64,000 nucleotides of DNA from contig NZ_FNJL01000005.1 of NCBI RefSeq assembly GCF_900104515.1, positions 1 through 64,000 on the forward strand. The letters are read 5' to 3'. Of this stretch, positions 17,053 through 38,247 are shown in pieces. A model generated the notes under the pieces. The model was given only the letters and a program-made list of their open reading frames with translations. It was not told the origin of the DNA and searched no databases. Source of the DNA: Paracidovorax cattleyae. Lineage in GTDB: Bacteria > Pseudomonadota > Gammaproteobacteria > Burkholderiales > Burkholderiaceae_C. Within the stretch, counting starts at the first letter, position 1. Each line of letters begins with the position of its first letter. Both the position numbers and the translations under genes were made by a program.

Positions 17053-17056
<4 letters not shown>

Positions 17057-17592
17057 AGGACCATGGACTGCTCCCGCCCGAGGCCGGCGGGGCCGCCATC
17101 GACATCGAAAGCGCCGCCTTCCCGCCCCTGGTGCGGCTGCTCGCCGTGGCCATCGTGGGCGGGCTGGCGGCCTTCGCGCTCTGGTCCATTCCCGCACTGC
17201 GCGGCGCGCAATGGACCTTTCCTGCCCTGGCGACCTTCGGCCTTGCGGCCGTGCTCATCGGCTGGGTGGGCTGGTGGATGGTCTTCAGCCGCACGCGCTT
17301 CTCGGACGCGGAGGGCGGCGTGATCGTGCAGACCTGGCTCTGGGACAAGCGCGTGCGCGCGGCCGACGTGGCCAGCTTCAAGATCGTGCACTGGCCATGG
17401 TTCCAGGCCGTCATCGCGCCGCGGATCCTGCTGCGGCGCAGGGGCGGCGGAATCACGTGGGTGCATGCGGCGGATGCGGGGTTGCTGGTGGCGTTCGGGG
17501 AGAGTGTGGTGAGGGCGGGGGCTGTGAATGGGCTTTCACGGGAGCCTTCTTCTGCATCTGCATCTGCACCTGCACCTGCTTCCATGCACTGA
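17053..17592 (+). CDS. Conserved membrane protein of unknown function, co-transcribed with dctQM
   Basis: The 179-residue protein overlaps dctM by 4 bp, so coupling is likely. Two hydrophobic helices (LLAVAIVGGLAAFALWSI and a second around FGLAAVLIGWVGWWMVF) are followed by a soluble C-terminal part. Its pattern (DAEGGVIVQTWLWDKRVRAADVASFKI) looks like a small beta-rich, PH-like membrane-associated domain. That is a guess from the layout. The last 15 residues are Ser/Ala/Pro-rich. No catalytic motif was found. A link to TRAP transport is suggested only by operon position. Confidence 0.7.
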
Positions 17593-17623
17593 TTCATTGG
17601 CGGGTTGGGTTTGCTTTCCGGAG

Positions 17624-18332
17624 CCGGGATTTCGCCCCGGCGGGCGAGTCACTTTCTTTCGCTTCGCCGAAAGAAAGTAACCAAAGAAAGGGCGACCCTG
17701 CTGTCTGCGACCCCGTTCGCCCGCGGGGCGAACGGGGCAACCTGGGGTGCTCGGGGACGGGGTGTGCCGTGGAACTCACTGCGCGCTTGCGCGCTACGTT
17801 CGGACAGCCACGGCAGATCAGTTCACGATGCAGGCGTGTCCTGCGGCACGCCCGCCACCCCGCCCCCTGCGCGCCCCAGGCGCATCCAGAAGGGAGTGAC
17901 TCGGGCCATTGCTTCGCTCGGCCTTAGGGAAGACAGGCCGTCGCTGCGCTCGGCCAAAGACCAGCAGCGCTCCGCCCACCAGTCGGGTGCGCGGTGCGAA
18001 GCACTCGCGCACCAAAGGCCGAGCAAAGCAATGGCCCGTCTGCTGCCCCCCGCCCTTGTGTCTGCGCCGAGGAGCGCAGGGCGCGGGGCGGGCAGGCGTG
18101 CCGCAGGACACGCCTGCTTCGTGATCTGACTCGCCGGGGATGTCAGAGCGCAGCGCACACCGTGCGCGAAGCGAGTTCCACGGCGCCGCCCCGCGACCGA
18201 GCACCACAGGCTGCCCCCTTCGCCCCACAGGGGCGAAGGGGGACGCAGACACCAGGGCTCGCCTTTTCTTTGCCTACTTTCTTTTGGCGAAGCAAAAGAA
18301 AGTAGGTGCGCCGCCGGGCGCACATCCCGGCC
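17624..18332. repeat. Giant imperfect palindrome, copy 1 (dispersed intergenic element)
   Basis: The left half (17624 to about 17923) and the reverse complement of the right half (about 18017 to 18332) align almost end to end. Shared blocks include the GCCGGGAT ends, the hairpins near the ends, GGCGACCCTG versus GGCGAGCCCTG, CGTGGAACTC, GGCGTGTCCTGCGGCACGCC and the inner GGGCCATTGCTT. Each arm ends in a small perfect hairpin: ACTTTCTTTCG paired at 17651-17678, and CTACTTTCTTTTG paired at 18274-18305. A central loop of about 90 bases contains a further hairpin (GTGCGCG...CGCGCAC). Frames inside it are by-products of the symmetry. A second copy lies at 37540-38236. Both sit between convergent genes. 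Confidence 0.85.
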
Positions 18333-18445
18333 CCGGGAAACAAACCCACCCCGCCCCAAAAAACAAAAAGGGAACGGCCCCAAAGGACCGTCCCCCAACC
18401 AAAACGCAGCTTCTTCTTATGCCAAAGAAAAGCCCATACCAGACA

Positions 18446-19525
18446 TCACAGCTTCTGCGCCTGCATGAACCGATCGAACGTCCCTTCCGTGAACCGGAAC
18501 CACGCGTTCTCGTCCGCCAGGAACTTCGCGTAATCCGTATAGACCTTCTTCCACTCCGGATTGGTATTGTTCAGGTCCGCATAGATCTGCTGCGCGGACT
18601 TGAACGCCGCATTCATCACGTCCTGCGTGAACGGCCGCAGCTTGGTGCCCGAGCCCACGAGCTGCTTGATCGCCACGGGGTTGCGCGCGTCGTACTTGGA
18701 CAGCATCGTGACGTGGGCGTGCGAGGCGGCAGCCTCCACCACGGCCTTGTACTCGGCCGGCAGGCCTTCCCAGGCCTTGGTGTTGATGTAGAAGTCCAGC
18801 TGCGGGCCGCCTTCCCACCAGCCGGGGTAGTAGTAGAACGGCGCGACCTTGTTGAAGCCCAGCTTCTGGTCGTCGTAGGGGCCCACCCATTCCAGCGCGT
18901 CGATCGTGCCCTTCTCCAGCGCGGGATACAGGTCGGCTCCGGGGATGGATTGCGGGATCACGCCGAAGGGCTCGAGCACCTTGCCGGCGAACGGGTTGGT
19001 GCGGAACTTCAGGCCCTTGAGGTCGGCGACGGACTTGATCTCCTTGCGGAACCAGCCGCCCATCTGCGCGCCCGTGTTGCCGCCGGGGAAGCTGATGATG
19101 TTGTACTTGGCGTAGAACTCGCGCATGAGCTTCAGGCCGTTACCCTCATACATCCATGCGTTCATCTGGCGTGCGTTCAGGCCGAAGGGCACGGCGCAGC
19201 CGAGGCAGAACGTGGGGTCCTTGCCGTAGAAGTAGTAGGGCGCCGTGTGCGCCATCTCGACGGAGGCGTTCTGCACGCCGTCCACCACGCCGAAAGCAGG
19301 CATCAGCTCACCGCCGGCATGCACCGAGATCTGGAACTTGCCGCTGGTGGCTTCGCTGACCTTCTTGGAGAACACTTCCGCCGTGCCATAGATGGTGTCC
19401 AGCGATTTCGGGAAGCTGGACGCAAGGCGCCAGCGGATGCTGGCCTGGGCATGCACAGCGGGGGCTGCGCCGGCCGCCAGCACGCCGGCGATGCCTGCGT
19501 GCCTGAGGATGGAACGACGATCCAT
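18446..19525 (-). CDS. dctP: TRAP transporter periplasmic binding protein (DctP/TakP-like)
   Basis: The 359-residue protein begins MDRRSILRHAG with a twin-arginine-like signal and a probable cut after AVHA. A GGAG site precedes the ATG on the minus strand. The mature part opens with WRLASSFPKSLDTIYG and contains GLKFRTNPFAGKVLEPFG and GTIDALEWVGPYDD, typical of the DctP fold. The SSFPKSLDTIYG start recalls the alpha-keto-acid binding proteins (TakP type), so 2-oxo acids or related organic acids are plausible ligands. It is the natural partner of dctQM at 14876-17056 but is convergent with them across the 0.7 kb palindrome and therefore has its own promoter. Confidence 0.88.
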   Translation of the reverse strand: MDRRSILRHAGIAGVLAAGAAPAVHAQASIRWRLASSFPKSLDTIYGTAEVFSKKVSEATSGKFQISVHAGGELMPAFGVVDGVQNASVEMAHTAPYYFYGKDPTFCLGCAVPFGLNARQMNAWMYEGNGLKLMREFYAKYNIISFPGGNTGAQMGGWFRKEIKSVADLKGLKFRTNPFAGKVLEPFGVIPQSIPGADLYPALEKGTIDALEWVGPYDDQKLGFNKVAPFYYYPGWWEGGPQLDFYINTKAWEGLPAEYKAVVEAAASHAHVTMLSKYDARNPVAIKQLVGSGTKLRPFTQDVMNAAFKSAQQIYADLNNTNPEWKKVYTDYAKFLADENAWFRFTEGTFDRFMQAQKL

Positions 19526-19714
19526 GGGTGGTCTCCGGTAATTGATTGCGAGCGAACGGCCGCGGGGCTCCGGATCACGGGGCGCCGGGACGGACTGTTT
19601 CAGCCGGAAACGATTGTAGGAATGGGCCACTCCGGGCCGTTGGGGGTTTTCCCGCGAAAGAAAAACGCCGTACGCGCAGCCCTCAGCCTTCTGCAAGCTT
19701 GCCGCGCGGTCCGG

Positions 19715-37511: not shown

Positions 37512-37539
37512 GGTTTTGGTTTTTGTTTTGGGGCGGGGG

Positions 37540-38236
37540 CCGGGTCTCGCCCCGGCGGGCGAGTTACTTTCTTTCGCTTCGCCGAAAGAAAGTAACCAAA
37601 GAAAGGGCGACCCTGCTGTCTGCGACCCCGTTCGCCCGATGGGCGAACGGGGCAACCTGGGGTGCTCGGGGGTGGGGTGTGCCGTGGAACTCGCTGCGCG
37701 CTTGCGCGCTACGCTCGGACAACCACGGCAAGTCAGTTCACGAAGCGGGCGTGTCCTTCGGCACGCCCGCCACCCCACCCCCTGCGCGCCCCAGGCGCAT
37801 CCAGAAGGGGTGACCCGGGCCTTCGCGTTGCTCGGCCCCAAGGCCGTCGCTGCGCTCGGCCAAAGCCCCAGCGCTCCGCCCCAGGAAAAACGGTGCGCGG
37901 TGCAACGCACTCGCGCACCCCGGGCCGAGCGAAGCAATGGCCCGTATGCGGCACCCCGCCCTCGTGGCTGCGCCGAGGAGCGCAGGAGGCAAGGCGCGCA
38001 GGCGTGCCGCAGGACACGCCTGCTTCGTGATCTGACTGGCTGCGGTTGTCCGAGCGCAGCGCGCCAGCGCGCAGCGAGTTCGCAGCCGCGCCTTGCCTCC
38101 GAGCACCGCAGGCTGCCCCCTTCGCCCCCAACGGGGCGAAGGGGGACGCAGACACCAGGGCTCGCCTTTTCTTTGCCTGCTTTCTTTTGGCGAAGCAAAA
38201 AAAAGCAGGTGCACCGCCGGGCGCACCCCCCGGCCC
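37540..38236. repeat. Giant imperfect palindrome, copy 2
   Basis: This is a near-copy of 17624-18332 in the same orientation relative to its left-end blocks (GCGAGTTACTTTC, GGGCGACCCTGCTGTCTGC, CGTGGAACTCGCTGCGCG, GGCGTGTCC). It also carries arm-to-arm symmetry. The left terminal hairpin is ACTTTCTTTCG paired at 37566-37593 and the right is CTGCTTTCTTTTG paired imperfectly at 38177-38208. The two copies differ by many substitutions and small indels, so they are not recent duplicates. Like copy 1 it lies between two convergent genes (stop at 37511 and stop at 38248). Confidence 0.85.
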
Positions 38237-38247
38237 CCGGCCAAAAA

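What the first reader, a model, noticed from the sequence alone, without database searches (positions are those of the whole stretch)
17624..18332. About 700-bp imperfect giant palindrome with terminal hairpins
Reading the right half in reverse complement reproduces the left half nearly end to end, with arms of about 300 bases and a 90-base centre. Each arm also starts with its own small hairpin (ACTTTCTTTCG type). Sequence this long with arm-to-arm similarity could fold as a single RNA stem or a DNA cruciform. It carries no convincing gene, and the arms have diverged while keeping pairing blocks. Candidates are a non-autonomous mobile element, a structured RNA, a bidirectional transcription or replication barrier, or a recombination substrate.
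Basis: seen in the sequence. Interest (0 to 1): 0.7.

Follow-up and report, generated by a model that had tools for sequence, protein, structure and literature searches.

The report
Mobile palindrome with folded DNA ends
A 755-base palindrome between two facing genes is one copy of a repeat family in which each half folds on its own into a conserved structure; related ends occur in many bacteria and a few copies carry genes between the halves, so it is probably a mobile piece of DNA with folded ends rather than one giant hairpin.

Summary
The palindrome is real (17600-18354; score 580 against at most 58 in 200 shuffles), but it is not one long stem. Across 51 copies, pairs are conserved inside each arm (112 pairs, 97.4% Watson-Crick), not between arms (299 pairs, 77.9%). 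Each ~300-nt arm is its own fold: two hairpins with pseudoknot-type pairings, then a branched domain. Changes come on both sides together (257 cells against 4 one-sided), and G-T pairs are rare (0.38% in variable pairs, against 13.4% in RNase P RNA of the same genomes), which points to constraint or correction at DNA level. Copies sit downstream of genes, about half between convergent genes, and evolve in concert within genomes. A model of the end unit matches 54 of 398 sampled genomes of the phylum; neighbouring units face inward (31 inward, 0 outward, 5 tandem). Six copies hold extra DNA between matching arms, one a PAAR-Tae4 module with 97% identical arms. Best reading (0.5): the empty form of a non-autonomous, REPIN-like element with folded single-strand ends; the enzyme is unknown. 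Main rival (0.25): bidirectional inward termination.

The parts
17600..17905 (+). left arm, read inward
17623..17647 (+). left end hairpin PK1: stem 17632-17635/17644-17647, with a possible outer stem 17623-17628/17636-17641 that would make it a pseudoknot
   Evidence: covariation in the genus; across taxa inner stem 39 of 54, outer stem 33 of 56, the latter no better than the best shuffle
17648..17695 (+). left hairpin PK2 (ACTTTCTTT...AAAGAAAGT) with a loop pairing to 17691-17695 (pseudoknot)
   Evidence: stem; loop-tail pairing across taxa: 75 of 92 classes
17711..17737 (+). left hairpin P3
   Evidence: perfect 12-bp inverted repeat
17747..17874 (+). left branched domain: long-range helix 17747-17763/17857-17874 around hairpins 17765-17815 and 17831-17854
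   Evidence: covarying pairs
17906..18048 (.). central part; in other genomes the place of extra genes
18049..18354 (-). right arm, read inward on the minus strand, same fold
18258..18336 (-). right end hairpins PK1 and PK2
18075..18201 (-). right branched domain (helix 18075-18091/18188-18201 around 18132-18185 and 18094-18115)
   Evidence: covarying pairs
17053..17592 (+). upstream neighbour gene, 179 aa, no Pfam match
18369..18396 (-). terminator-like hairpin of the neighbouring dctP, outside the element
18446..19696 (-). convergent neighbour, DctP family
   Evidence: PF03480, E 7.8e-63
37526..38246 (+). second copy of the element, also between convergent genes

Best explanation
It is the empty form of a non-autonomous mobile DNA element whose ends are long inverted arms. 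Each arm, as a single strand, folds by itself into two hairpins with pseudoknot-type pairings plus a branched domain, so that either strand presents a folded end when single-stranded. An enzyme supplied in trans (inferred; a Y1/HUH transposase of the REP-IS200 kind is the model, none is tied to it) or recombination between copies spreads and homogenises it. Insertions persist mainly just downstream of genes. Other genes sometimes lie between the arms and may travel as cargo. Shown: the family, the arm folds, near-absence of G-T pairs in the home genus, inward pairing, 3' context, concerted evolution, gene-bearing copies, a gain at one site. Inferred: recognition as single-strand DNA, the enzyme, transport of cargo.
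For: Intra-arm pairs 97.4% Watson-Crick, 53 of 59 variable pairs with two or more Watson-Crick types; slid controls 31-38%. 257 two-sided against 4 one-sided cells, 0 of 500 shuffles as high. G-T 0.38% and A-C 0.77% in variable arm pairs against 13.36% and 2.30% in RNase P RNA of the same genomes. Across taxa, allowing G-T adds no more loop-tail stems (75 of 92) than allowing A-C (76 of 92). 31 inward, 0 outward, 5 tandem neighbours. Context 26 convergent, 29 tandem, 2 divergent. Concerted evolution in 26 of 38. Six gene-bearing copies. One site filled in G010 and, at a contig end, G012, with both flanks but no element in 11 other genomes. RAYT-type proteins (NF047646) occur in 41 of 47 unit-positive and 54 of 90 unit-negative genomes of the class (p = 0.0009, not corrected for kinship).
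Against: No enzyme tied to it: no copy beside ten of the 18 Y1 genes of relatives; 6 of 47 unit-positive genomes of the class have no NF047646 match. No target-site duplication found. Few copies, stable sites shared by up to 12 genomes. A Burkholderiaceae arm set gave 9.4% G-T, though on 17 pairs of a poor alignment; alifold on whole elements gave 3.2%. The inner domain is recognised by model mainly in Comamonadaceae. Selection on RNAs of both strands would also remove G-T pairs.
Confidence: 0.5

Rival explanations
1. A bidirectional transcription stop or mRNA 3'-end module: each arm begins with a GC-rich hairpin followed by a T-rich tract facing inward, so transcripts entering from either neighbour stop or are processed there.
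For: Terminator-like hits face inward at both ends (17631-17648 + and 18323-18306 -; 4 hits in the region against 1.1 expected). 55 of 57 copies are not between divergent genes and 26 are between convergent ones. Two related units in a Clostridium bin lie directly after tRNA genes on the same strand. In G004 and G007 an ordinary terminator-like hairpin stands at the empty site.
Against: The T tract is interrupted by C. dctP has its own terminator outside the element. G-T pairs are missing where an RNA would tolerate them. Termination does not need ~600 bases of branched structure, concerted evolution or gene-bearing copies. REPs show the same context (PMC3733652, passages).
Confidence: 0.25
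2. Templated self-correction: hairpin-forming DNA is kept self-complementary by template switching, and dispersed copies by gene conversion, with little selected function.
For: All mismatch classes are about equally rare (G-T 0.23%, A-C 0.47%, other 0.58%), two-sided changes without intermediates, homogenised copies.
Against: Many unpaired bases are invariant in 32 arms; the two arms of one element are not homogenised (76% in the window); an end unit similar across phyla.
Confidence: 0.15
3. One giant hairpin or cruciform formed by the two arms.
For: The arms are about 76% complementary.
Against: No mirrored arm-to-arm pair among the 250 strongest covariations; 77.9% Watson-Crick between arms, with 22% mismatches or G-T.
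Confidence: 0.03

Closest known systems
REPINs (inverted REP doublets) and RAYT/TnpAREP transposases
   Same: Extragenic, inverted pair of hairpin-bearing ends, located between convergent or same-direction genes, compensatory changes (PMC3116915, PMC3733652, PMC8266576: passages).
   Different: End unit ~105 nt with pseudoknot-type pairings inside arms of ~300 nt; no GTAG/CGTC tag before the hairpin; few copies; no linked RAYT; gene-bearing versions.
Intergenic dyad sequences of Haemophilus influenzae
   Same: Named in PMC4144887 (passages) as intergenic elements thought to help move gene loci; H. aegyptius has an inward pair of this end unit.
   Different: Their sequence was not seen (papers not held), so identity is unproven.
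MITEs / non-autonomous transposons (from general knowledge)
   Same: Short, without a gene of their own, inverted ends.
   Different: No parent transposon or target-site duplication found; each end folds independently; few copies at conserved sites.
Intrinsic (bidirectional) terminators
   Same: GC-rich hairpin and T-rich tract, 3' location.
   Different: Interrupted T tract, very large, concerted evolution, near-absence of G-T pairs.

Membership tests
REPIN / REP | inverted doublet of hairpin-bearing ends in extragenic DNA | tested here: met
   31 inward, 0 outward, 5 tandem neighbours; copies between genes
[quoted passage not shown]
   In alignment A2 the bases before the ACTTTC hairpin vary (GTC, GTT, CTC, CCT, GAT) and the conserved unit is longer; definition from PMC8266576
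REPIN / REP | high copy number (over 100 per genome is usual) | tested here: not met
   6 places in the own genome; 2-21 unit matches in 14 genomes; definition from the abstract of PMC2817692
REPIN / REP | linked single-copy RAYT gene | tested here: inconclusive
   One Y1 gene in each of 18 relatives but no copy beside the ten examined; NF047646 in 41 of 47 unit-positive against 54 of 90 unit-negative genomes of the class, not corrected for kinship
Intrinsic terminator | GC-rich hairpin followed by a run of T | tested here: inconclusive
   Inward hits at both ends with C-interrupted T tracts; activity not testable
Rfam structured RNA | match to a described family | tested here: not met
   no match over this element or over the units in nine other loci
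H. influenzae intergenic dyad sequence | sequence identity with the published element | not testable with these tools
   Original papers not held
DNA transposon / MITE | target-site duplication and precise empty site | tested here: inconclusive
   Empty sites found but flanks are too diverged (about 80% at the left flank) to see a duplication

The most novel reading that the evidence does not exclude
A widespread, so far unnamed class of mobile gene cassette: inward-facing ~300-nt ends that fold as single-stranded DNA with pseudoknots, mostly empty but able to carry genes such as interbacterial effector modules, spread over several bacterial phyla and kept uniform within each genome.
Probability: 0.3. 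Interest if true: 0.82.

Novelty: new variant of a known kind. Interest (0 to 1): 0.62.

Why it matters
If the DNA-level reading holds, this is an extragenic element with pseudoknot-type single-strand ends across several phyla, a possible carrier of small gene cassettes including a type VI effector module, and a natural system for asking how a genome keeps dispersed palindromes alike. It also warns annotators that long open frames across these repeats are probably not genes.

Tried and rejected
Single stem/cruciform: rejected by covariation. Coding: no Pfam match, indels mostly not in threes, although long stop-free runs persist. Rfam: none. RAYT as mobiliser: followed because each of 18 relatives has one Y1 gene and because L296 holds a RAYT between its arms. 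Against: no copy beside the ten Y1 loci examined, and the L296 gene sits in its own repeat cassette, which in G093 lies outside the palindrome. A first comparison (12 of 14 core-positive and 10 of 14 core-negative genomes with PF01797) was a poor test: 8 of those 14 negatives carry the unit by model R1, and G164 and G406, without PF01797, do have an NF047646 match, so all 14 positives have a Y1-type protein by one or the other model. The larger comparison favours a link, so I leave RAYT open. My odds did not change with this mend.

Insertion inside an arm (L228; read by eye as an IS256-like transposase, no family search) is not cargo. Phage link: no match in the phage collection; 8 stretches of 7 viral contigs with the core, of which I looked at one. 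Inner-domain model R2: 13 matches over 81 loci; 8 strong ones in five loci (Comamonas, Acidovorax, Paracidovorax, Xenophilus, an unclassified Comamonadaceae); weak ones in L057, L301, L158; Haemophilus not matched. Burkholderiaceae arm fold: poor alignment, 17 pairs, 9.4% G-T. Greedy longest-ORF gene calls were wrong for the window and were replaced by codon-trained ones. Row L193 of A2 was taken at wrong coordinates; it stayed in model R1 and was left out of the PK1 test. For one search I dropped 8 of the 124 rows (seven 32-33-nt antisense echoes and one 37-nt partial match more than 4 kb from any other unit). Literature searches; the library lacks most subscription journals. No listing showed a paper describing this element outside Haemophilus.

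Full report
Observation. The element is at 17600-18354. Its self-reverse-complement alignment scores 580 against a maximum of 58 in 200 dinucleotide shuffles. It lies between a + gene ending at 17592 and a convergent DctP-family gene whose 3' end is at 18446. dctP has a terminator-like hairpin of its own at 18369-18396. A second copy lies at 37526-38246, again between convergent genes.

Family in the genus. DNA search finds six places in the own genome, two of them at contig ends that may be halves of one copy, and matches in 24 of 40 relatives, including all 16 of the same genus. I fetched 60 further stretches holding matches, three of them from the own genome. With the window copy 61 were scored for context by a gene call trained on five window ORFs and not otherwise validated; 57 had both neighbours: 26 convergent, 29 tandem, 2 divergent. 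The gaps of the whole window are 6, 37 and 6, the two element gaps included; other gaps in the fetched stretches are 4, 79 and 8. Copies of one site are not independent: flanks group 43 of the 61 into eight sites shared by 2 to 12 genomes, and leave 18 singles.

Concerted evolution. Of 51 full-length copies in a tree, 38 are at sites shared between genomes. For 26 of these the most similar sequence is another copy of the same genome, for 12 the same site in another species; two of the 12 had no second copy in the set, and a few are near ties. Sites 1 and 2 of G006 are 99% alike, while their best matches at the same site in another species are 68% and 85%.

Each arm folds alone. Mutual information over the 51 copies gives helices inside each arm, including a long-range helix 17747-17763/17857-17874 around two hairpins, mirrored on the right; none of the top 250 column pairs is at mirrored arm-to-arm positions. 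On 32 non-redundant arms the consensus has 56 pairs, 31 with changes on both sides. 98.1% of cells pair; 257 cells are changed on both sides and 4 on one side; 0 of 500 shuffles reach the number of two-sided changes; slid versions pair 39-50%. One measure, further pair types, is not above the shuffles (487 of 500 as high), as expected when types are few and strict. On full copies, intra-arm pairs are 97.4% Watson-Crick and inter-arm pairs 77.9%. The left arm folds as single-strand DNA 6.3 standard deviations better than 200 shuffles.

Pseudoknots. Among 151 non-redundant end units found by an exact core pattern (92 loop/tail classes), the loop of the ACTTTCTTT hairpin is complementary over at least 4 bases to the bases after CAAAGAAA in 75 of 92 with G-T allowed (shuffles: mean 36, maximum 46) and in 70 of 92 with Watson-Crick pairs alone. 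For the first hairpin the inner stem pairs in 39 of 54 (shuffles: mean 20.8, maximum 29); the outer stem, which would make it a pseudoknot, in 33 of 56 (mean 23.9, maximum 33), which is weak. In the home genus the second hairpin's pseudoknot stem is nearly invariant, so its support is cross-taxon.

DNA or RNA. In variable arm pairs G-T makes up 0.38% of cells and A-C 0.77%. In RNase P RNA of relatives in the family, through the same script, G-U is 13.36% and A-C 2.30% (17 non-redundant of 23 sequences, 34 pairs, 13 variable). On full copies the intra-arm figures are 0.66% and 0.93%. Across taxa, allowing G-T adds no more loop-tail stems (75) than allowing A-C (76). This argues for constraint or correction at DNA level, or on both strands. 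Against it: a Burkholderiaceae set gave 9.4% G-T on 17 pairs of a poor alignment, and the consensus fold of whole elements gave 3.2%. REP authors cite the frequency of G-T pairing in favour of RNA function (PMC3733652, passages); here that sign is nearly missing.

Spread. Its fixed letters make the core look more constant than it is. In a sample of 398 genomes of the phylum the exact core is in 16 and model R1 (105 positions) in 54 at E 1e-5, with only nine candidates scored per genome. In 14 core-positive genomes 116 units give 31 inward, 0 outward and 5 tandem neighbours within 4 kb; 28 inward pairs span 387-834 bases and 3 span 1467-2320. The inner domain is recognised by model mainly in Comamonadaceae.

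Genes between the arms. Six copies hold extra DNA between arms that match each other: L116 (255-aa ORF; arms 207 of 241 identical), L136 (two ORFs; 240 of 281), L294 (173 of 221), L295 (152 of 213), L296 (66% over 182 bases) and L352 (246 of 253). The tested ORFs of L116, L136, L294 and L295 have no convincing family hit (PADLOC for L116 and L136 only). L296 holds a REP-associated tyrosine transposase (NF047646, 94 bits, cut-off 80) in its own repeat cassette, which in G093 lies beside the palindrome instead. L352 holds about 2.7 kb with a PAAR protein, a Tae4 amidase effector and a DUF6402 C-terminal match; Tae4 proteins act on other bacteria (general knowledge). Whether such genes move with the arms is not shown. 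[quoted passage not shown] H. aegyptius has an inward pair of this unit, but I could not compare sequences.

Movement. The dctP site is filled in G000, G002, G008, G009, G010 and G013 and, at contig ends, in G012 and G015. It is empty in four genomes where both neighbours were found (G004, G007, G011, G016); in the other genomes the site was not comparable or the stretch examined did not reach it. G004 and G007 have an ordinary terminator-like hairpin there, read by eye. The L194 site is filled in G010 and, at a contig end, in G012; in 11 other genomes both flanks match with no match to the element. In G010 and G012 about 100 further flanking bases recur beside other copies. No target duplication could be defined.

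Enzyme. RAYT-type proteins (NF047646) occur in 41 of 47 genomes of the class with an R1 unit and in 54 of 90 without (p = 0.0009, not corrected for kinship; whole sample 46 of 54 against 175 of 344). Six of the 47 have none. No copy lies beside ten of the 18 single Y1 genes of relatives. A link is possible but not shown.

Judgement. The evidence best fits a non-autonomous, REPIN-like element with folded single-strand DNA ends, mostly empty. It fails the tag/size and copy-number tests of REPINs, and a linked RAYT is not shown, so it is not filed as one. The strongest rival is termination from both sides.

Noticed in passing
L352:1305-4542 (G359:C1): A PAAR-Tae4-DUF6402 type VI secretion module lies between two 97% identical inward arms.
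   Followed up: partly
L087:3848 and 4216: In a Clostridium bin two units start a few bases after the 3' ends of two tRNA genes, on the same strand.
   Followed up: no
L296:1865-2647 and L298:1-783: A 783-bp cassette with a RAYT gene lies inside the palindrome in one genome and beside it in another (90% identical).
   Followed up: partly
L238 and L242, upstream of the dctP match: At the dctP site, where other species have the palindrome, G011 and G016 show CRISPR-like repeats (by eye, no search).
   Followed up: no
G357:C6:521835-522739 and C8:268922-270079: Units doubled in tandem, giving nested palindromes in one Burkholderiales-order genome.
   Followed up: no
L139:4438-7576: Two inward units 3 kb apart in a distant locus with a MutS-like gene (PF00488) between them; arm similarity not tested.
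   Followed up: no
G000:C24 and C26 ends; several relatives: Contigs end inside copies of the element, so draft assemblies undercount it.
   Followed up: no
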